Shown piece after piece: positions 53,434 to 64,000 of a stretch of 64,000 nt of DNA. Location: contig NZ_MDJS01000004.1 in assembly GCF_001705515.1 (NCBI RefSeq), positions 62,001 to 126,000 on the forward strand. Reading direction: 5' to 3'. The notes beneath the pieces were generated by a model. That model was not told the DNA's origin and searched no databases. It was given only the letters and a program-made list of their open reading frames with translations. The position numbers were made by a program, and so were the translations under genes. The DNA comes from Mucilaginibacter sp. PPCGB 2223 (lineage in GTDB: Bacteria; Bacteroidota; Bacteroidia; Sphingobacteriales; Sphingobacteriaceae). Every line of letters starts with the position of its first letter. The stretch's first letter is position 1.

Positions 53434-54144
53434 TTATAGTTGTATCCCATATTGAACTATCTCAGGCGGAATATTGAATTTTAAAGGCAAATAATCTACA
53501 TCTTTTGAGCCTTTTATAACAATAACATTATTAACCACTGTTATTTTTTTATATATCGTCAAAAAGTACTCTATACCTAACTTAGCACTATCAATTTGAT
53601 GTTCAAAAATTATCGTGTCATAACCTTTCTCCAAAGTAAAAACTGAATACATGTTAAAGTCGTCAAAGTTAATTGATAGAATAGCTTTAATATTTGTCCC
53701 ATATAAAACAATGTTTTCTTCTAACAATCTGAAATTTGTTTCCAAATTCATTCTAAGCCCTTTATGGTAACCATATTCCGCAGCTACTGCTAATTCCGAA
53801 ATCTTACTTTTTACAGATACTTCGATTAATATTTCATAGGCCCTTTCCCATAAAAAATAATTTTTTTCTTGTTTCGTCATTAGGTTAAACGCTTCAATAT
53901 TAAAAACGTCATTGTAAAAAATTGTATCCTTATAATAATGTGTATAATATCTCACAGATTTTGGATATAACTGATATGTTTCTTCAGTTGAAAATTTAAG
54001 ATTCAGAAACTTGATTTTTCTCCCGTTGTATTTTTCGTTAAGTAGTCTATTAAGCAACAAGCATAGGGGATAGAATTGATTGTCTATATCTATCAAATCA
54101 TTATGCCCGTCTCGAAAAAAGAACATTATTCTGCCTATACTCAT
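53434..54144 (-). CDS. Probable immunity protein for the RHS toxin
   Basis: The 236-residue protein is encoded 7 bp after the RHS stop on the same strand, the standard position of an immunity gene. It has no signal peptide, as expected of a cytosolic protector. The gene is visibly more AT-rich than the rest of the window, with many Ile, Asn, Lys, Tyr and Phe codons, a sign of recent acquisition along with the toxin tip. Segments include FNLMTKQEKNYFLWERAYE, EYGYHKGLRMNLETNFRLL and NVIVIKGSKDVDYLPLKFN. I recognise no immunity family, so the assignment rests on position and composition. Confidence 0.6.
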   Translation of the reverse strand: MSIGRIMFFFRDGHNDLIDIDNQFYPLCLLLNRLLNEKYNGRKIKFLNLKFSTEETYQLYPKSVRYYTHYYKDTIFYNDVFNIEAFNLMTKQEKNYFLWERAYEILIEVSVKSKISELAVAAEYGYHKGLRMNLETNFRLLEENIVLYGTNIKAILSINFDDFNMYSVFTLEKGYDTIIFEHQIDSAKLGIEYFLTIYKKITVVNNVIVIKGSKDVDYLPLKFNIPPEIVQYGIQL

Positions 54145-54151
54145 ATAATTA

Positions 54152-57100
54152 TTAATTTGATGTTGATGGTGCCGGCACCGGATTAGTTACAACATTTGTA
54201 TTAGCCTTTGCTGGTCCGATAGGACGTCCTGTGTTAAAATCTACCGGATAAGGTTTTTTCATATCTAATAAGTTATATTGCCCGGTTGAGTTATATTGCA
54301 AACTTCGCAAATATTTTTCGAAGATATGCGCCGTTGCTTTTGGAACAACACCCGAAGTTCGATAGGTGGCCCCTTCGCCAGCTGCTTTAAGAGATTGCCT
54401 CAACCGAACCCCATTTGCATCAGAAACACCAACTTTAACCAGTCTTCCCTCAGCGTCATAAATCGTATACGAAAATGACGGTTTGGTTGAGGTAGAAGAG
54501 GTAGTAATGTTCGTGACCGGATCAATAGCAATTTTATTTTCATTTGCCGCTTCAATATTTCCTGCATTTGCATTTGCAGATTCCATACTCGCAACTTCAG
54601 CTGTTGAAGCAGCGCTGGCAACTCTGGCTGCAACAAATTCATCTGCCGCTACTGTGCTACCCAAAGCTGCATGACTTGCAAAAATATCGTCTCCTGCCTT
54701 ATCTTGTCTATCGTGTTCCCATTCCTTAATCTGTTTTATAGTTTTACCATGAGCAACTATTTTTAATTCCTGAAATGAGTTAAATACAGCTAATTGTTCG
54801 CCTTTGTAGAATAAGACCGCATGAGATGGTTCTCCTGGTTTTCTATTCATCATGTCATTAGCTATGTTATCCATCCAGTCTTTTTCTTCTACATTACCTT
54901 GTTGAATTGCAAAAATTGGTTTACCATCAGAGTTTTTGGATAACACTAAATTATAATTGGCATTCTCTAAACCATCCAAATCAACATTAGCTATTGGACT
55001 ATTACCTGCAAATTGGTAAGGTGTAAAGAATGGAAATTTAGTTTGTAACGGGTCAAGACTTAAAAATCTGCCCGATCTTTTGTCATATACTCTTTTGCCA
55101 TAATCCTGTGCACCATTCTCTATATTCTTGTCGTTCTCTTTCCCGTTAAACCCATATCGGTAACTATCACCATTGTAAGTCAGCCCCGGTTGCTCCATGC
55201 CAAAAGCATAATAACTTTGAGCATTCGCTACATCAGCCTCGTAATGCCCAACAACACTCCCACTCACCACTTGCAAACGCCTGTCCGTTATAGTCACCAA
55301 AACATTGCCCAAATGGTTAGTGAGTTCGTATTTCTTCTTACCTACCGTATCATAAATCGCACGGGTATTACCTGTTGCCATATTCATATCCGGCTCCCAC
55401 ATCCCTAACCGCGAGCTTCCATAGATATGTTGCTCCTTCCAGTTAATGGCACTATGCGCATTGTCGTACAAGGCCAGCGTATTCCCCTGTCCATCCCTCA
55501 CGTAATAGGTCGTTATGCTGTTGGCTGTTTTGGTCACCCGCTGCCCACCGGGGTCGTAGCTATAAGTAACAACATTGCTACCTTTGGCTACTTTCTTTAT
55601 TTTTCCGTAAACACTCCAATTTATACTATCTATCCCGGCCTGTGTATCTTTTATTAAATTGCCAATTTGGTCATAACTGTAGTTATTCGCCGGTTGGTTC
55701 TTAATATCGGTGCTGTAGGCGCCATCGCTGGCGTTGTCGGTTACATAATTCAGTTTATTGTTAGCTAAACGGCCGTTATTATCGTATGTGTAACGGTAAA
55801 TTAAGCTGTCCATCCGGCCAACGTTGCCATAGCGGTTTGCCGTTAATATGTTACCGTTACCATCATAAGTAAAATTCTCTTTGTAATTATTGGTTGCAAT
55901 CGGCGTCCAGGCGTTAGTTGCGCTGTCCAGCCCGGTAAAGGCATTGGCGCGTTTAATCCGGTTCAGTTGGTCATAACCGTATTGGCATAGCATAGGTATC
56001 CCCAGTTGTTTGATATTTACCGTTTGTGCCACTATGTTACCGTTGTACAGTGGTTTGTTTAGTGTAGGGTTGGCAAAAGGGTTGCTTATACCTGTTCCTA
56101 TCGGCTGGTAATCATTGTTACCAAAGTAATGCAATGCAAAGCCGTAGGCATCCCGTGCTACGTTGTTGTTATTCGGGTTGCTCCTGCCGTCCTGGTTTAT
56201 ATCGATATCCGGGTTCAGGTTGCTGCTGTTGGTGCCTTTTAACCAGCCCTGCAATGTATACGCATAATCCACTCCCTGCACTTTGCTGTACTGGTCGCCC
56301 AGTTCCAATCTCGCCAGCGGGCCGTGCAGGTAGTATTGGTAATGGGCATCCTGTTTGCTCCATTCTTTCAGCAGGTAGCTGCCGTTGCTTGGGTCGGTAA
56401 TGGCTTTAACGCCGCTCCAGGCATGGGTTAGCCTATTATCGGCATCATAGCTGTATTTATAATAAAACTGATCAGCTTTCCCATCCTGGTACCGCACAAA
56501 GTTTACTTTACCGCTGATTAAGTCATACTCATAATCAATCTGTTTAATACCCAGTCCCGCTATCTGCTGGTACAGGGTTTTTACGTTGCCGTCCAAATCG
56601 TAATTATAATACGTGGCATGCATTACCGTGTCGCCCTGGTTTTCTTTGTAGGTGCTTAGGGCTACCCTCTTTCGCAGGTTGTTTTGAGCCAGGTTATGGA
56701 TGCCGCCGGTTATTGCCGGTTTATAATCATAATACGTATGCGTGATCTGGCTATTCGTCCCCGCACTGTTAAAGCTGTTTACTTTCGTCGTATCCACATA
56801 GTCGGGCCTGGTGCCTATGTAATGGTATAGCGCGCTGCTGCCTGTCGCTCCATGTTTCTGCCCTACTTCTTTGATTCGTCCCAGCGGGTCGTACTGGGTA
56901 TAGCTGTAGTTGCTGTCGGGTTGCTGTTTATCGTTCTGTGATATCACCAATCTGCTCAGCAAATCATACCAGAACCTGTTCGTCCCTCCGTCCGGGCTGT
57001 TTTGTTTGCTTACCTGGTTGGTGCTGTTGTATACGTAGGTCGTCCTGAGCGTATGGTTCGGGTAGATCGCGCTCAACCTTGTTTCCAGCGTGCTCGTATC

Positions 57101-60100
57101 GTTGACGGCCGTTACCGCTCCTGTATCCGGCACGTTGAACCTGTACCAGTGCATTTGGGTGGTATCGCTTGGCAGCAGACAATTGTCGGCTGCGTTGGCT
57201 GCTATTTCCGTAGTTGTGAGCAGGCGGTTATACAACCGCAGGTGTTTCAGCGTAGCGTAATTCGCCGGGAAGTTTACGCTCGTGTTCGTTGCTTTTACGC
57301 TCCACCTGCCCACCGTCTTCTGTTTCGGGCTCAGCTGGGTTTGCAGCGTGCCGTTCAGGTAGATGTTCAGTGTCCCTGATGCAAAATTGCTGCCTTGTAT
57401 AACGATATGCACCCAGGGGTTCAGCGGCAATTGCGCCGATATATCCATCGTCGCCCGGTTGCTCAGCGTGTATTTGATCCGGTTGGCCGACGTCTGCGTC
57501 GTACTATACACTTCTACCTGCAGCCGGTTACCGCTGATCGCCGTCCTGAACTGGTAATGCCTGTCCGGTGTTTCCTCGATAAACTGGTTCGTGCCCGTGG
57601 TATTCGGGTAATACAGCCACATTTCGATGGCTTTGTTTGTTGTAGTTGCCAGGGTTGTGGATAAGGCATTGAACGCCGTCGTCGTGTCCGAATTCGTTCT
57701 CGGCTCATAGCCTGGCGCCGTGCAGGTGGTGGTATTGGCCCGTGCCTGCTGCACCCACCCGATCTGGGTACCTGATAATAGCTGCACCCCTTCCGGCGGG
57801 ATCGTCCGCACCAGGTTATCCGCCTGATCGTAGTAGTACAGCGTATAATGGTACTCCTGCTGTTCGGCTTCCATCGTAGCTTCGGCTTTAGCCGCCGAGC
57901 AGGTGTTTATATAGGCCGTCCTGAACAGTCTCTTCTGCTCATCGATGTAATCATTATAATCCCTTCTGCCGTTAAATACTGCCGTGGCAATCTGATCTTT
58001 GATGCACTGGTAAGGGTCGGGGTAGATGGTTATCGTCGATGGCGTGTTGCACAGTATCGCCGTGCTGTCCGCCAGGAGCTTGGTCTTATAATTCTGGTAA
58101 TCCTCGTAGTTCAGCGTAAATCCCCATTTCTGGTTCATGTAATTGGTGAAGATCGTCCGGTACAGGGTATCCGCCGTGCTCAGGCTCCCGCCAAAGGCGG
58201 TCGAGAGGTCGCTTTGCGCCTGGTTAAATGCTGATGGAAGGATGCAGCCCGTTGCCCCCGGGTCGATAAATACCGGCAGCTGCAGGTCCTCGGCTATCAA
58301 AAACTTACAGTTCGCGCACGATTTCTGCAGCTCGGCAAACTGCGCCGCCGTCAGCGTCATCGCGTTACCGTATTTGCTCAGCAGCCAGTTATACAGCCCC
58401 GCCGTACTTCCCGAGGCCACATAATCCGAATTGAGCTGCGCCAGCTTGTTGCAGATCCCCGTATCGCTGATGCCCACCACCCGCTGCGCCAGTTGCGCCC
58501 TCGGGCTTGCCGGGTACGGCATATTGATCAGCCAGGGGTTCAGCAAACGCGTATACGTGCTGATACCCGTTACCGATTTAAGCGCATGGCCAAAGCTCCG
58601 CCCCGGCGCCGTGCTCGCACCCATCAAATGGTTCACATCCCCGCCAAGGGTACAAATGGCAATCAAACTATCGCGCAGGTGGCGCTTTTTCGTCGTCGAA
58701 TCGCTGTATTGATCCAAGCCCCGGTTCAATACTGCCATCCAGCTGTCGGCCTGTACCTCGCAGGCGGTCTGCACCTGCTGGTTGATCACATCGTGCGCAT
58801 GGGCAATGGCATCCGCCGCCGATGGCGGTACGCTGCTGCTCTGCACGCCAATATCAAAGCGCGAGGTTTTATAGGCATATGCTGAATCGCAGAGCGGGCC
58901 GGGTGGGACATAAATAAAGTCTGAGCATATATTATCTAACTTAGAAACATCAATATTAGCTCCAGTAACGGAATGAACACAATTAAACCCTTGTACACAA
59001 AAGCCTGAATAACATGGATCTTCAGCTCCGAGAGTATTTAAAGAAATGTAATTGTAATGGACAATGCTACTATCAATCGGTATAATAATTGGTACAGAAA
59101 TAATTGTTCCTGTTGATGCTCCACAGGTCAGCACATTGTAGTTAATGCCAACTGTTATTTCTGGATGTGACGTTACAGGGTTGCCTAAAACATCAATTAG
59201 ACTAATAGTGGTCGTTCGCCAACTTACAAAATATTCAGTTTCACCGCACTCTAATTTATTACTAATAACATCGTTCTCATCATCAGTCACCATTATGGTG
59301 TATATAGGTCCAGATACCGGCACCACTACCGGCCCACCGCCACCGCCCGCACAATTAACGGCGCTGATATGTATGCCCGATACCGGGATGCTCAAAGGCA
59401 CGCAAAATAGCTTAACCGAGTCGCCCGCGGCAAAGCTCAGCGCGGTAGGCAAGCCCGTAACCGCCGAGCCCGGCGGGTAATAAATTCCAACCGTAACCGC
59501 CCCCGGCACCGCGCCCGGCAAATAGCGTACACTCACGCTCCGGTGCAGGCTATCGCATGCAAGCTGTGTACTATCAGCAATATTATACGCATCAATAACA
59601 AAATTAGCGGCATCGGGGCAGGAGCTTACGGCAGCCATAGCGTAGGTTACCGGTACCCCGACTTTGCAATCGTTCGCGCAGGTACTGTCGCGCAGGCGTT
59701 TGTAAAACGTATCCTTTAATTGAAAATAAAACTGCTTATAATTGGTCCACTCCCTGTCGGGCACACGGCAGGCGCTGTCGACATTGCAATTGGTCCAGGT
59801 ATCCGTTGAGCTGTAGCTGGTATTGGTTAGCCAGGTATGGGTGGTATCGGCGCAATACAGGCCAAAGTCCACAAACTGCGTTAAACTTTTTGCAGGCAGG
59901 CCCGATGCCACATGCAAAACATTGGCACTGTAATTCAGCAGGTCGTTCCGCATTTCGGTTAAATACCGGTGGCCGCTACCGCCGCTGGCAAAAAAACTAT
60001 CCGCGTTAAGCAAATAATCGGCGCTGTTGCTTGGGCTGTAATGCAGTGTCGATACACCTGTCGGCACCGGGATGTTAGGTATATCGCCGGCACTGTTGAT

Positions 60101-62824
60101 ATTTTGCTTCACCAGGTTATCCCAAGCGTACGAATCGCTGTTGGCATAACAAAACAGCAGTTTGCAGTACTCCGGGTGATACGGCAAAAACAGCTCGGCC
60201 CATTTATCCTGCCAGTAAGTTACCAGCATACCCAGGGTAAATGCGGGATCATACGGCGAGGTCACCGTCCCGTCGCTCAGCGTAACCAGGTTTTGCCGGT
60301 ACAGCGAATCCGCCGGACTTAAATTATTAAAAACCGTGGTCTTAAAATTCGTCGCCAGCACATTGATGCCCGGCTCCAAAGCATTCGTCCCGCTAAACAG
60401 TGCATATTGCCCGCCCGGCGAAACATCCTGGAGCATCTGCTGTTTCACCGCATCGCAGGGCGATACATGGCAACTGTTATGGATCGCCGTGGCAATCACC
60501 AGCAAACTATCATACTTATTATTCAACCAGGTATTGTAGGCCGTGGTGGTCAGCGTAGCCGAATCTACTTTTAATGAGCGCAGCTTCGCTGTAAACATGG
60601 TAGTAAAATCGCTGCGCGTTCCCAGTATGTTCAAGCTGTTCTTGCAATCGCTCAAACAGCCCGAGTAATCTATCTTATCCAGGTAAGGTTGTATAAAGCT
60701 GAACTCCTTACGGAGATAGCCGCTAGCGTTTCCCTGGCTGATAAAATTATCCACATAGTTTTCGATCACATTTTTGTTTAATGCGAACGTAAAGCTGATA
60801 TGATACTCGCCTACATTGCTTATCGGTACGCTGATGCTGTCGCGATAAGCAGCCGTATCCGCACAGTTCGATGTTGCCGCTCCTATCTGCACCGGGTGCG
60901 CGTTGGCATAAACTACATTATTGCAATCATCAAAAACCTTAATGGTCAGCTCATAATGGCAATTGCTGCACACCGTAAAACTACCGCCGGGATATTTATC
61001 GATCAGCTTCTGGATATCATATTTTAACACCGTGCTATCCGGCACCGAGGCCAGGTAAGTGGTACTGGCCGACAGCGTCATATCCGAACTGTTATAAACA
61101 AACTGCGCCGGACTAAGCAAATGAATAGTTTTTCGTGTTCTTTTTGTGTACGATGTCAGCGTATCCAGGTTATCGGGCGCTTTACCGGTCAATGCCGTAG
61201 CGATGGTTTTGCCGCTGGCGTTCAGGTAGCTGATGCTGATCTGCTGGTTCGGGTCGATCACCATGTTTTTAAGGTAATGCTCGGCATAACCTGCATCGTT
61301 GCCAAAAAGCTGGTCGAGCTCCCACTGCTCGGGTTTACCGTAATAGTATTTGGTGGTTTTGCTTGCCGCCGATTTACCGGGTTGAAAAGTTGCGCCCACC
61401 CCGCCCTGAACCTTGATCCGGCCGGTATTATCTGCCGTATACTGCGTAACCGAGATCGGGAAGCCGCTGCCATCGGGTATATAACTGTTATACCTCGGCC
61501 CCGCGCTCACAAACGGGTTAGATCTCGAATAATATCGCGATGCTCCGGACGTGGTATTCAGCGAATCCGGATTAAACTCACAGTTGGCCGATAATGTCGT
61601 ACCCTTCACATTGATAAAAGTATACGAGCTATCGTCCGTGGCATTCCGGTTAAAATTGGTAATATAATGCAGTGCCGGGTTTATTGCTGTCGAATCTTTA
61701 AACGGAGCCGGCAAAATACTCGCCGTGGCGCGACCAAACTGGTCGTAAATATTTTCCTGGGCCAGGGCAATGTTATCCGAGTTATTGATGGTTACCGTTT
61801 GCCGCCCGCGCAAGGTACCGTCGAAATAACTCACCACTTCTTTTTTCTTGCCATCCTCGGCAAATGCCGATGAATACTGCCAGTTTAACTTAGGCTCGTT
61901 CCAGGTGAGCGCCCATATCGAATAGCCGGTACTACCCGCCAGCCGGTAATCCCAGTCGCCTTCATTACGCAGGCCATTAGCAGCGTACTGTACCTGCCTT
62001 ATCCGCACCACAATGTATTTATCGTTGTACATTAACGACAGGTTGTAACTGTTTTGCGATGTCGTTACCCTGCTGGCATTGTTGCGGAACAGTTGGTCGA
62101 GTGTGGCCGTGCTTTGGCTGATATTGGCCGCCATCTGTGTGGCCAGGTTGTAATTCTCCGAAAGGCTATCAATCGTTGTCCACTCAATATCATATTCTTC
62201 AGAGCCACTGATATTGGCGACGGTGACAGGCACCCAACTCAGATTCAACTGCTTACCCGAAGTTGAGGTAATGGATGAAATGCTGCCGCTGATACCTACT
62301 GCCGCGTGCGGGCTGAAATCGTATTTCCGGTTAATGGTGATCCGGCTGGTTAACTGGTAAAAAGGCATACCACCCGCCCCGGCCGTATTGTTAATGCTTA
62401 AAATCCTGAAGAAAACTTTATAGGCGCCTGTAAAATCGTAGGTATCCATGCCCTTATAAGTGGTACCATGTGCCGGGTTGTAGCTTACAACCAACGACTT
62501 GTCGACCGAATCGGGAATGGTTTGGGTCGGGCTGCTATACGTATACACGCGCAAACGTACGCTATCTTTAAAACTATAGGTGATCAGCGCCGAATCCACC
62601 ACCTGTAGGGTGATCGCATCTTTCACCGCGATGTTATGGATGCTGCTCCACGAAACCAACGGGTTCTGGAACATCTTGTCCTTAACCGTCATTGTATCGC
62701 CTACATGCAGGGTCGGTTTCAAAAAGTTAACGTAAGGTTCGGTACCGGCAAAGCTGTTCCGGCTCATTATCAACGAGCAGAGTATCGTCAGTCCTGTAAT
62801 CACCTTGTTAATCGATCTGTACAT
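54152..62824 (-). CDS. Giant RHS-repeat polymorphic toxin with URI-like C-terminal module
   Basis: The 2890-residue protein has a signal peptide (LIMSRNSFAG). A DUF6443-type start region lies near residues 310-390 (SSAFAEDGKKKEVVSYFDGT). A long Cys-rich middle follows, then a LamG-like domain near 1730-1885 (EMWLYYPNTTG, WVHIVIQGSNF, GTLNIYLNG). YD/RHS repeats run to about 2540, and the RHS-associated core lies near 2520-2614 (LTNHLGNVLVTITD, SYYAFGMEQPG, GKRVYDKRSGRFLSLDPLQ). The final ~275 residues are variable: an Ala-rich linker and a tip near 2780-2860 with YTIYDAEGRLVKVGVSD, an Arg, FEKYL and an Asn, resembling the GIY-YIG/URI nuclease layout. An AT-rich island codes residues about 1170-1306. 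Confidence 0.9.
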   Translation of the reverse strand: MYRSINKVITGLTILCSLIMSRNSFAGTEPYVNFLKPTLHVGDTMTVKDKMFQNPLVSWSSIHNIAVKDAITLQVVDSALITYSFKDSVRLRVYTYSSPTQTIPDSVDKSLVVSYNPAHGTTYKGMDTYDFTGAYKVFFRILSINNTAGAGGMPFYQLTSRITINRKYDFSPHAAVGISGSISSITSTSGKQLNLSWVPVTVANISGSEEYDIEWTTIDSLSENYNLATQMAANISQSTATLDQLFRNNASRVTTSQNSYNLSLMYNDKYIVVRIRQVQYAANGLRNEGDWDYRLAGSTGYSIWALTWNEPKLNWQYSSAFAEDGKKKEVVSYFDGTLRGRQTVTINNSDNIALAQENIYDQFGRATASILPAPFKDSTAINPALHYITNFNRNATDDSSYTFINVKGTTLSANCEFNPDSLNTTSGASRYYSRSNPFVSAGPRYNSYIPDGSGFPISVTQYTADNTGRIKVQGGVGATFQPGKSAASKTTKYYYGKPEQWELDQLFGNDAGYAEHYLKNMVIDPNQQISISYLNASGKTIATALTGKAPDNLDTLTSYTKRTRKTIHLLSPAQFVYNSSDMTLSASTTYLASVPDSTVLKYDIQKLIDKYPGGSFTVCSNCHYELTIKVFDDCNNVVYANAHPVQIGAATSNCADTAAYRDSISVPISNVGEYHISFTFALNKNVIENYVDNFISQGNASGYLRKEFSFIQPYLDKIDYSGCLSDCKNSLNILGTRSDFTTMFTAKLRSLKVDSATLTTTAYNTWLNNKYDSLLVIATAIHNSCHVSPCDAVKQQMLQDVSPGGQYALFSGTNALEPGINVLATNFKTTVFNNLSPADSLYRQNLVTLSDGTVTSPYDPAFTLGMLVTYWQDKWAELFLPYHPEYCKLLFCYANSDSYAWDNLVKQNINSAGDIPNIPVPTGVSTLHYSPSNSADYLLNADSFFASGGSGHRYLTEMRNDLLNYSANVLHVASGLPAKSLTQFVDFGLYCADTTHTWLTNTSYSSTDTWTNCNVDSACRVPDREWTNYKQFYFQLKDTFYKRLRDSTCANDCKVGVPVTYAMAAVSSCPDAANFVIDAYNIADSTQLACDSLHRSVSVRYLPGAVPGAVTVGIYYPPGSAVTGLPTALSFAAGDSVKLFCVPLSIPVSGIHISAVNCAGGGGGPVVVPVSGPIYTIMVTDDENDVISNKLECGETEYFVSWRTTTISLIDVLGNPVTSHPEITVGINYNVLTCGASTGTIISVPIIIPIDSSIVHYNYISLNTLGAEDPCYSGFCVQGFNCVHSVTGANIDVSKLDNICSDFIYVPPGPLCDSAYAYKTSRFDIGVQSSSVPPSAADAIAHAHDVINQQVQTACEVQADSWMAVLNRGLDQYSDSTTKKRHLRDSLIAICTLGGDVNHLMGASTAPGRSFGHALKSVTGISTYTRLLNPWLINMPYPASPRAQLAQRVVGISDTGICNKLAQLNSDYVASGSTAGLYNWLLSKYGNAMTLTAAQFAELQKSCANCKFLIAEDLQLPVFIDPGATGCILPSAFNQAQSDLSTAFGGSLSTADTLYRTIFTNYMNQKWGFTLNYEDYQNYKTKLLADSTAILCNTPSTITIYPDPYQCIKDQIATAVFNGRRDYNDYIDEQKRLFRTAYINTCSAAKAEATMEAEQQEYHYTLYYYDQADNLVRTIPPEGVQLLSGTQIGWVQQARANTTTCTAPGYEPRTNSDTTTAFNALSTTLATTTNKAIEMWLYYPNTTGTNQFIEETPDRHYQFRTAISGNRLQVEVYSTTQTSANRIKYTLSNRATMDISAQLPLNPWVHIVIQGSNFASGTLNIYLNGTLQTQLSPKQKTVGRWSVKATNTSVNFPANYATLKHLRLYNRLLTTTEIAANAADNCLLPSDTTQMHWYRFNVPDTGAVTAVNDTSTLETRLSAIYPNHTLRTTYVYNSTNQVSKQNSPDGGTNRFWYDLLSRLVISQNDKQQPDSNYSYTQYDPLGRIKEVGQKHGATGSSALYHYIGTRPDYVDTTKVNSFNSAGTNSQITHTYYDYKPAITGGIHNLAQNNLRKRVALSTYKENQGDTVMHATYYNYDLDGNVKTLYQQIAGLGIKQIDYEYDLISGKVNFVRYQDGKADQFYYKYSYDADNRLTHAWSGVKAITDPSNGSYLLKEWSKQDAHYQYYLHGPLARLELGDQYSKVQGVDYAYTLQGWLKGTNSSNLNPDIDINQDGRSNPNNNNVARDAYGFALHYFGNNDYQPIGTGISNPFANPTLNKPLYNGNIVAQTVNIKQLGIPMLCQYGYDQLNRIKRANAFTGLDSATNAWTPIATNNYKENFTYDGNGNILTANRYGNVGRMDSLIYRYTYDNNGRLANNKLNYVTDNASDGAYSTDIKNQPANNYSYDQIGNLIKDTQAGIDSINWSVYGKIKKVAKGSNVVTYSYDPGGQRVTKTANSITTYYVRDGQGNTLALYDNAHSAINWKEQHIYGSSRLGMWEPDMNMATGNTRAIYDTVGKKKYELTNHLGNVLVTITDRRLQVVSGSVVGHYEADVANAQSYYAFGMEQPGLTYNGDSYRYGFNGKENDKNIENGAQDYGKRVYDKRSGRFLSLDPLQTKFPFFTPYQFAGNSPIANVDLDGLENANYNLVLSKNSDGKPIFAIQQGNVEEKDWMDNIANDMMNRKPGEPSHAVLFYKGEQLAVFNSFQELKIVAHGKTIKQIKEWEHDRQDKAGDDIFASHAALGSTVAADEFVAARVASAASTAEVASMESANANAGNIEAANENKIAIDPVTNITTSSTSTKPSFSYTIYDAEGRLVKVGVSDANGVRLRQSLKAAGEGATYRTSGVVPKATAHIFEKYLRSLQYNSTGQYNLLDMKKPYPVDFNTGRPIGPAKANTNVVTNPVPAPSTSN
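58910..59320 (-). other. AT-rich island inside the RHS gene
   Basis: By eye this stretch is about one third G+C, against more than half on both sides, and the change is abrupt at each end. It stays in frame and encodes about 136 residues with cysteine motifs (KLECGETEY, LTCGAST, CYSGFCVQGFNC). It suggests insertion or exchange of a domain. Confidence 0.6.
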
Positions 62825-62834
62825 TTATCGTTTT

Positions 62835-63635
62835 CTATAAATTGATCAATTCGTAACCTGTATATTTCCCTGTTAGCTTTGTGCTATTACCTGCCTGCCG
62901 GATTGCCGTGTACCTGCCGACATATTTGTCCACATCGGCAGTATCGTCGCATTCAGCTATCGTAATCTCTATTATTTTTTCCCTGTCTTTTCTTTCAGGC
63001 GCCTTAAAATTGGTCAGCCTCGCATAAACCCGGTTCGCCTTTTTGCTCAGCGTATCAAAAGTGATGGCATACTCCTTGCAGGTAATGTGCCTTTCGTTCA
63101 CAAAGGCGATGGTTTCGTTTTTACCCGCAACGCTGTCTGTCAGGTTATAATAGTCGGCAGCCATATTCTTAGCCATCTGCGACATATCAGGCAACGGCGC
63201 ATCAATAAAGCTTTTTTGTTCGGTAACGATCACCCTTTTCTGATCATTCTCTATGCAGATATACTTCCCCCGGGCATTCAGTATCACGGTATGGCCAAAC
63301 TGGTAAAAACAATCGCTGCCCTTTTTGCACATCGTAAAAGTCAAATTCCTGATGCTCTTGCTGCTATCGGCGCCATCGGTAACATTAATCACGCCCGAGC
63401 AGGTAAAAACCGGTTTTTGCATGTTGAATACCTGGCAAACGGTCGCAAACTTTTGCAGGATAGCCTGGTTATAAACAGGAGTTTTGCGAACCGGCTGTGC
63501 ATATACAGCTTTTTCCGGGCGATGGATAACCTGCCAGTTCAATATTTTATGGCCTAATGCCCAGGTAAAAGCAGTTATCGCCATCAGCATGGTGAAAAAT
63601 ACAAGTCCTTTTATTCTTTTGCTATTGTTCATCAT
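62835..63635 (-). CDS. LolA-like periplasmic protein of the RHS operon
   Basis: The 266-residue protein starts MMNNSKRIKGLVFF with a signal-anchor (TMLMAITAFTWALGHKI). The rest is beta-rich: PVFTCSGVINVTD, IRNLTFTMCKKGSDCFYQFG and KYICIENDQKRVIVTEQKS, a pattern like the lipid-binding half-barrel of LolA-type proteins with several Cys residues. It lies between a large YD-repeat-like protein and the RHS gene with gaps of only 7 and 10 bp, so it belongs to the same operon. It may help bring the giant RHS protein through the envelope; that is inference from position. Confidence 0.68.
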   Translation of the reverse strand: MMNNSKRIKGLVFFTMLMAITAFTWALGHKILNWQVIHRPEKAVYAQPVRKTPVYNQAILQKFATVCQVFNMQKPVFTCSGVINVTDGADSSKSIRNLTFTMCKKGSDCFYQFGHTVILNARGKYICIENDQKRVIVTEQKSFIDAPLPDMSQMAKNMAADYYNLTDSVAGKNETIAFVNERHITCKEYAITFDTLSKKANRVYARLTNFKAPERKDREKIIEITIAECDDTADVDKYVGRYTAIRQAGNSTKLTGKYTGYELINL

Positions 63636-63642
63636 TACTCCC

Positions 63643-64000
63643 TTAAAGTGTTTTCCGGTACGATGACCGGCTCTCTTTCAGTGTCATTATCCCCCGTTCC
63701 GTTTCTTTTTTAACCCGCACCAGCAAACCTTCCTCGTCGTATTCATAAAAAGTGGCAAAACCATTTTCGTCTATTTCTGCCATCAGGCGCATATTTTTAT
63801 CGTTGTAGGCGTAAGTTTTCAGGTGCGAATTAAAAGGGTGCATCCTGATATCATCGATATGCACATTGGATGTCGTAGGAGATACCTGCATCGTAAACGG
63901 AGTGCTTAACATAAAGCTGCCCAATGTAAATGTACCTTCAACCAGTTTCCAGCCTTCAACGGTAGCTTTACGCGTCAGGGTAACCGGGCTGCCGTTAATC
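63643..64000 (-). CDS. C-terminal end of a large YD-repeat-like protein (partial)
   Basis: The reading frame is open to the window edge, so only the last 118 residues are visible. It ends with RMHPFNSHLKTYAYNDKNMR, an EIDENGFATFYEYDEEGLLV segment and KKETERGIMTLKESRSSY. The tandem Tyr-Asp-type pieces are like RHS/YD repeats. A TTG at 63924 could look like a start, but conserved-looking sequence upstream (VEGWKLVEGTFTLGSFM) argues that the gene simply continues. It is the first visible gene of the operon that includes the LolA-like protein, RHS toxin and immunity gene. Confidence 0.75.
   Translation of the reverse strand, partial: INGSPVTLTRKATVEGWKLVEGTFTLGSFMLSTPFTMQVSPTTSNVHIDDIRMHPFNSHLKTYAYNDKNMRLMAEIDENGFATFYEYDEEGLLVRVKKETERGIMTLKESRSSYRKTL

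What the first reader, a model, noticed from the sequence alone, without database searches (positions are those of the whole stretch)
54152..55000. RHS toxin tip resembles a divergent GIY-YIG/URI nuclease
Seen: after the RHS core (ending near residue 2614) an Ala-rich linker is followed by Tyr-Ile-Tyr, VKVGVSD, an Arg-rich RLRQSL, FEKYL and a downstream Asn, the order of the GIY-YIG catalytic residues. Known: URI/GIY-YIG nucleases are reported tips of polymorphic toxins. Inference: this is a nuclease toxin with the Gly of GIY replaced.
Basis: partly seen in the sequence, partly recalled or inferred. Interest (0 to 1): 0.72.

Follow-up and report, generated by a model that had tools for sequence, protein, structure and literature searches.

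The report
Divergent GIY-YIG-like RHS toxin tip
The last 126 residues of a giant secreted bacterial RHS protein are most likely a small, very divergent nuclease toxin of the GIY-YIG (URI) kind, encoded right beside a protective immunity gene from a family that has no name in the libraries searched and that also sits behind recognised toxins of this kind in other bacteria.

Summary
The 2890-aa RHS protein (54152-62824, minus strand) ends in a swappable cassette, residues 2765-2890. A 62%-identical relative diverges abruptly there and carries a different tip. The named motifs exist, in GIY-YIG order and spacing: Y2786, K2797-V-G2799, R2807, E2836, N2851. Besides Gly to Phe, the second Tyr is Lys, as in the Tox-URI2 toxin clade (signature Y, KxG, [EQ]). 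The tip has no homologue at usual thresholds and is missed by Pfam Tox-URI2. Single-sequence AlphaFold gives beta-beta-alpha-beta-alpha at modest confidence; a three-row alignment gave a poor model. The best independent evidence is the adjacent 236-aa gene: its profile matches (E 4e-6; score 45 versus shuffle maximum 22) an unnamed immunity family that follows Tox-URI2 or Tox-URI2-like tips in all four other toxin-linked cases, in Bacteroidota and Bacillota, and none of about 35 other RHS tips. The tip also shares the ordered motifs of those toxins (alignment z 4.5-5.8). Verdict: probably a divergent Tox-URI2-type GIY-YIG nuclease toxin with its immunity protein. Activity is untested.

The parts
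54152..62824 (-). giant RHS polymorphic-toxin protein, 2890 aa; Sec-type signal peptide at the N-terminus (by inspection, about residues 1-26), DUF6443 at residues 321-393
   Evidence: signal peptide by inspection only
54968..55213 (-). RHS-associated core domain (TIGR03696), residues 2538-2619
   Evidence: NCBIfam E 1.9e-11
54533..54967 (-). pre-tip module, residues 2620-2764, shared with one relative (G007) that carries another tip
   Evidence: 62% identity over 2585-2763 then abrupt loss of similarity; found in only 2 of 150 genus genomes
54155..54532 (-). toxin tip cassette, residues 2765-2890
   Evidence: boundary; no database family
54245..54484 (-). proposed divergent GIY-YIG/Tox-URI2-type nuclease domain, residues 2781-2860: Y2786, K2797-x-G2799, R2807-x-x-Q2810, K2829-xx-A2832-xxx-E2836, G2848, N2851, KP-x-P 2857-2860
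   Evidence: AlphaFold single-sequence topology; motif chain and alignment to four Tox-URI2-type tips
53434..54144 (-). candidate immunity gene P0002, 236 aa, starts 7 nt after the toxin stop; member of an unnamed immunity family that follows Tox-URI2-type tips elsewhere
62835..63635 (-). 266-aa protein with a hydrophobic N-terminal segment directly upstream of the RHS gene (10-nt gap), no family
63643..63999 (-). C-terminal end of a 2021-aa RHS-like protein that runs off the window; part of the same gene row

Best explanation
The cassette is the toxic end of a secreted polymorphic RHS toxin. The RHS shell carries and releases the tip (established for RHS toxins in general, inferred here). The tip is a divergent GIY-YIG/URI-fold nuclease of the Tox-URI2 type: Y2786, K2797, R2807 and E2836, with N2851 or a neighbouring residue, form a metal-dependent active site that cuts nucleic acid, probably DNA, in a competing bacterium (fold and residues partly shown, chemistry and substrate inferred). 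The downstream 236-aa protein binds and neutralises the tip in the producer and its kin (inferred from position and family).
For: Cassette exchange at residue 2764. GIY-YIG residue order and spacing. KxG matches the published Tox-URI2 signature Y, KxG, [EQ] (PMC3482391). Unbiased single-sequence AlphaFold: beta3-9, beta15-22, alpha26-35, beta40-44, alpha49-58, pLDDT 76-84 for the first 40 residues; I-TevI and UvrC GIY-YIG domains appear in the PDB top 50 and at least six named GIY-YIG proteins in the viral top 50, all weak. Blind MAFFT alignment with two Tox-URI2 tips of the same genus puts R2807 and E2836 in invariant columns. Summed alignment to four Tox-URI2-type tips gives z 4.5-5.8, 0 of 1000 shuffles as good, and exceeds 35 other tips. 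The C-terminal motif [KR]xxAxxxE-x-G-x-PxP has shuffle p 3e-4 and no other tip has it. Immunity: the profile of P0002 and its orphan homologue L145 (42% identity) against 12 other family members scores 45.4, E 4e-6, with column-shuffle maximum 21.7. That family sits behind the Tox-URI2 tips in G820 and G829, Paenibacillus (tip 64.7 bits to PF15653, partner 62 bits to the family), Persicobacter (partner 99.8 bits), and behind none of about 35 other RHS tips.
Against: PF15653 does not match the tip even at E 10, and an HMM of the four relatives scores it no better than shuffles (rank 156 of 1983). AlphaFold with a three-row alignment fell to pLDDT 39 and lost helix 1. All fold-search hits have E above 0.02. 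No sequence homologue of the tip was found in any collection searched. The hairpin resembles a YD repeat. The motif patterns were partly set after seeing the tip. P0002 matched against four toxin-linked partners alone is not significant (score 21.7), so the link runs through the wider family, most of whose members are orphan genes.
Confidence: 0.78

Rival explanations
1. The tip is a toxin domain of another fold, and the Tyr/Lys-x-Gly hairpin is just a stray YD-repeat-like beta-hairpin of the RHS protein (convergence or a captured repeat); its mechanism would be unrelated to GIY-YIG.
For: Own YD repeat SYTQYDPLGRIKEVG and a relative's FSYTDYDALGRIIEVG align with the hairpin; Pfam RHS_repeat is among the only weak hits; the three-row AlphaFold model is poor.
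Against: The resemblance stops after about 23 residues (the rest scores 28 against the shell). The rest is predicted helix-strand-helix, not a YD shell, and carries the C-terminal Tox-URI2 motifs. The cassette lies after the RHS core, where relatives have toxins. The partner gene belongs to the family found behind Tox-URI2-type tips.
Confidence: 0.15
2. The tip has the GIY-YIG fold but is inactive or non-nucleolytic (for example a binding domain, or a decayed toxin kept for its immunity gene).
For: The second catalytic Tyr is Lys, the insert between strand 2 and helix 1 is short, and the tip is a singleton.
Against: KxG is the published signature of the Tox-URI2 clade (PMC3482391). The frame is intact over 2890 codons, and Tyr, Arg, Glu and Asn are all retained.
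Confidence: 0.12
3. P0002 is not the cognate immunity protein: it is a neighbour unrelated to the tip's activity.
For: Most family members in this genus are orphan genes without an adjacent toxin.
Against: It starts 7 nt after the toxin stop, same strand, like the partners behind the Tox-URI2-type tips. Orphan immunity genes are common in polymorphic systems: Paenibacillus sp. 37 has a 95%-identical orphan copy of the P. amylolyticus partner in an immunity-gene row.
Confidence: 0.1

Closest known systems
Tox-URI2 (PF15653), second URI/GIY-YIG clade of polymorphic toxins (Zhang et al. 2012, PMC3482391)
   Same: C-terminal tip of RHS proteins; Y, KxG, E signature; R-x-x-Q, [KR]xxAxxxE, G and PxP motifs in order; partner gene of similar size and the same family as in four other loci
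   Different: No match to the Pfam model at E 10; strand 2 to helix 1 loop much shorter (8 residues from G to R against 14-22); third strand region shorter; Asp instead of Gly after G-V-S
GIY-YIG nucleases of the I-TevI/UvrC/YhbQ kind (PF01541)
   Same: Order of elements and of the Tyr, Gly, Arg, Glu, Asn residues; blind hhalign puts Y2786, KVG and R2807 on Tyr, Y[IT]G and Arg of 25 YhbQ-like proteins
   Different: Gly of GIY is Phe and Tyr of YIG is Lys; hhalign score within shuffles (14.0 against 95% 14.6)
Nte4/Nti4, GIY-YIG Rhs effector and immunity pair of Neisseria cinerea (PMC8263058)
   Same: Rhs protein with a C-terminal GIY-YIG nuclease that is toxic in E. coli and rescued by the adjacent gene
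   Different: Type VI-associated proteobacterial effector; recognised by cd00719; here a 2890-aa Bacteroidota protein with a Sec-type N-terminus
TANFOR-class Bacteroidota polymorphic toxins (PMC7073777)
   Same: Large secreted Bacteroidota proteins with swappable tips, GIY-YIG among them; the T9SS gene sprA is present in this genome
   Different: No TANFOR domain found here; an RHS shell with DUF6443

Membership tests
RHS polymorphic toxins | RHS core domain followed by a variable C-terminal tip | tested here: met
   TIGR03696 at 2538-2619; 62% identity up to 2763 then a different tip in G007
RHS polymorphic toxins | Adjacent immunity gene | tested here: met
   P0002 starts 7 nt downstream and belongs to the family found behind Tox-URI2-type tips; rescue not tested
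Tox-URI2 | Match to PF15653 | tested here: not met
   No match at E 10 in own genome, no hmmscan hit
Tox-URI2 | Signature Y, KxG, [EQ] (PMC3482391 Table 2) | tested here: met
   Y2786, K2797-V-G2799, E2836
Tox-URI2 | Alignable over full length to accepted members above chance | tested here: inconclusive
   Summed pairwise z 4.5-5.8 but HMM of the four members gives chance-level score and hhalign score 17.2 against shuffle 95% 13.8, maximum 18.2
Tox-URI2 | Partner gene of the same immunity family as accepted members | tested here: met
GIY-YIG superfamily | beta-beta-alpha-beta-alpha core | tested here: inconclusive
   Single-sequence model has it, mean pLDDT 60; three-row model pLDDT 39 lost helix 1; fold-search hits to GIY-YIG weak
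GIY-YIG superfamily | Catalytic Tyr, Tyr, Arg, Glu, Asn in order | tested here: inconclusive
   Tyr, Arg, Glu, Asn present in order and spacing; second Tyr is Lys, as in Tox-URI2
GIY-YIG superfamily | Metal-dependent nuclease activity | not testable with these tools
   needs purified protein

The most novel reading that the evidence does not exclude
A previously unnamed immunity family, found in Bacteroidota and Bacillota, is the dedicated partner of Tox-URI2 nucleases; the present tip is an extreme branch of that toxin clade, unrecognisable by sequence profiles and identified through its immunity gene. If so, immunity genes can be used to classify singleton toxin tips.
Probability: 0.65. Interest if true: 0.5.

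Novelty: new variant of a known kind. Interest (0 to 1): 0.42.

Why it matters
Here the tip's neighbour gives the answer that the tip itself cannot: an immunity family that keeps company with one toxin fold across two phyla. That family is absent from Pfam and NCBIfam as searched, and includes many orphan copies that would mark past exposure to Tox-URI2 toxins. The Lys-for-Tyr active site also makes a direct biochemical question: how a KxG GIY-YIG nuclease cleaves.

Tried and rejected
Direct homologue search of the tip by single sequence: nothing in 150 relatives or 396 phylum genomes (the weak hits were SusC, an RHS repeat or frame noise), genome contigs, plasmids and phages. For one search the seed alignment A4 held artificial rows used only to widen the search pattern; 563 candidates, none confirmed. 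hhalign of the tip against 25 YhbQ-like GIY-YIG proteins: correct register but not above shuffles. AlphaFold with a three-row alignment: poor, reported as evidence against. HMM of four Tox-URI2 tips: no signal. Rejected: phage hit MT838641 and plasmid hit in Rhizobium (chance); Vasohibin and Nse3 weak hits (chance). G095:C65 GIY-YIG match in a long frame is a restriction-system-like neighbourhood, not an RHS tip.

Full report
Observation. The finding covers the last 283 residues of a 2890-aa ORF on the minus strand, 54152-62824. The RHS-associated core domain ends at residue 2619. The string is Y-T-I-Y, not Tyr-Ile-Tyr.

Where the tip begins. The closest relative of the protein (genome G007 of the same genus, locus L056) is 62% identical from residue 2585 to 2763 and then unrelated. 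Its own tip resembles a PD-(D/E)xK nuclease by eye (PDFAILDRETGKIVKIVDAKNG) and is followed by a different downstream gene. So residues 2765-2890 are an exchangeable cassette, as in polymorphic toxins. The genome has only two RHS proteins with this core, the other of 2988 aa on contig C1.

What the tip is, directly. No Pfam, NCBIfam, PHROG or PDB sequence match is meaningful, and no homologue was found in any collection searched. A single-sequence AlphaFold model of residues 2781-2890 has mean pLDDT 60, with 76-84 in the first 40 residues, and the order beta-beta-alpha-beta-alpha, which is the GIY-YIG order. Fold searches give no significant hit, but I-TevI and UvrC GIY-YIG domains are in the PDB top 50 and at least six named GIY-YIG proteins are in the viral top 50. 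Against this, a model with a three-row alignment was poor (pLDDT 39), and the hairpin alone resembles a YD repeat of the same protein.

Residue register. hhalign against 25 YhbQ-like GIY-YIG proteins, although not above shuffles in score, places Y2786 on the Tyr of GIY, K2797-V-G on Y-[IT]-G and R2807 on the catalytic Arg. From my knowledge of I-TevI (Y6, Y17, G19, R27, E75, N90) the tip has the same spacing Y, +11 K, +13 G, +21 R, and E to N 15. The second Tyr is thus Lys. That is the signature published for the second URI toxin clade, Tox-URI2: Y, KxG, [EQ] (PMC3482391).

Comparison with Tox-URI2-type tips. Two RHS tips of the same genus match PF15653 at 21.5 and 16.7 bits, and plasmids gave Paenibacillus (64.7 bits to PF15653) and Persicobacter (20.8 bits) tips. 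Blind MAFFT alignment of the tip with the first two makes R2807 and E2836 invariant. The four share Y.[IV], [KE].G[IV]S, R..Q, [KR]..A...E, G and P.P in order. The tip has all of them, with a shorter loop before the Arg. Shuffle frequencies are 3e-5 for the N-terminal half and 3e-4 for the C-terminal half; in a 168,000-residue ORF set the N-terminal half is found only in the two known Tox-URI2 tips and the C-terminal half occurs twice in all. The patterns were finished after seeing the tip, so these are not clean p-values. The summed alignment score to the four, which involves no pattern, is 4.5-5.8 standard deviations above shuffles, with 0 of 1000 as high, and above 35 other RHS tips. The Pfam model and a four-sequence HMM do not see the tip. 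So it looks like a Tox-URI2 but fails that family's model.

The neighbour. The gene starting 7 nt after the toxin stop encodes 236 aa of no known family (P0002). The genes directly behind the two Tox-URI2 tips of the genus encode 249 and 238 aa and are homologous to each other. A search with the three together found more members, including an orphan 42% identical to P0002 (L145). To avoid circularity, a profile of only P0002 and L145 was compared with a profile of 12 other members: hhalign score 45.4, E 4e-6, 168 columns; column shuffles reach at most 21.7, the reversed profile 12.7. The HMM of those 12 members then recognises the partner of the Paenibacillus Tox-URI2 tip (62 bits), of the Persicobacter tip (100 bits) and, weakly, of a frame-shifted Bergeyella copy (20 bits). 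It hits nothing else among 1201 ORFs around about 35 other RHS tips. Most other members are orphans, as usual for immunity genes; Paenibacillus sp. 37 keeps a 95% identical copy in an immunity row after a tip exchange. This is independent evidence that the tip belongs with Tox-URI2. Its limit: P0002 against four toxin-linked partners alone is not significant (score 21.7).

Mechanism. Shown: cassette architecture, residue pattern, immunity-family link. Inferred: GIY-YIG fold (moderate support), metal-dependent cleavage of nucleic acid, release from the RHS shell, delivery, neutralisation by P0002. The protein starts with a Sec-type signal by inspection, follows a row of secreted-looking genes including a 2021-aa RHS-like protein, and the genome has the T9SS protein SprA. 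T9SS export has been proposed for other Bacteroidota polymorphic toxins, some with GIY-YIG tips (PMC7073777), but was not tested here. A GIY-YIG Rhs effector of Neisseria cinerea is toxic in E. coli and rescued by its adjacent gene (PMC8263058), which shows the proposed function is possible.

Verdict. The toxin kind is known; the variant is extreme, and its immunity family appears to be unnamed in Pfam and NCBIfam.

Noticed in passing
L145 (G078:C536), L142-L152: Unnamed immunity family with many orphan members at fixed chromosomal places in this genus, for example next to an 820-830-aa secreted protein gene in three species.
   Followed up: partly
L056/L136 (G007:C103): Closest RHS relative carries a PD-(D/E)xK-like tip and a 233-aa candidate immunity gene, neither with a significant Pfam match.
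   Followed up: partly
window 62835-63999 and contig C4 125646-137278 (L137): The RHS gene is near the end of a row: three proteins with a shared EMNKLLLKKVEELTLYLIEKDKQ-type C-terminus, a 2021-aa RHS-like protein, a 266-aa protein, then the toxin and its immunity gene; possibly one secretion and delivery operon.
   Followed up: no
G007:C17, G026:C1:171728-177900, G014:C7, G028:C19: Extra RHS-core-plus-tip ORFs of about 480-1330 aa next to or near full-length RHS genes, in G007:C17 several in a row: typical orphan toxin cassettes.
   Followed up: no
L164 2262-2857 (Bergeyella porcorum plasmid): A Tox-URI2-like tip apparently broken by a frame shift between two annotated ORFs, with its immunity-family partner still intact.
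   Followed up: partly
L063 (G067:C1), end of a 2933-aa RHS protein: Tip ends in VYRILQ...NGNPLYKYGWS, which looks like the first hairpin of a Tox-URI2-type domain cut short; the downstream gene is not of the immunity family described here.
   Followed up: partly
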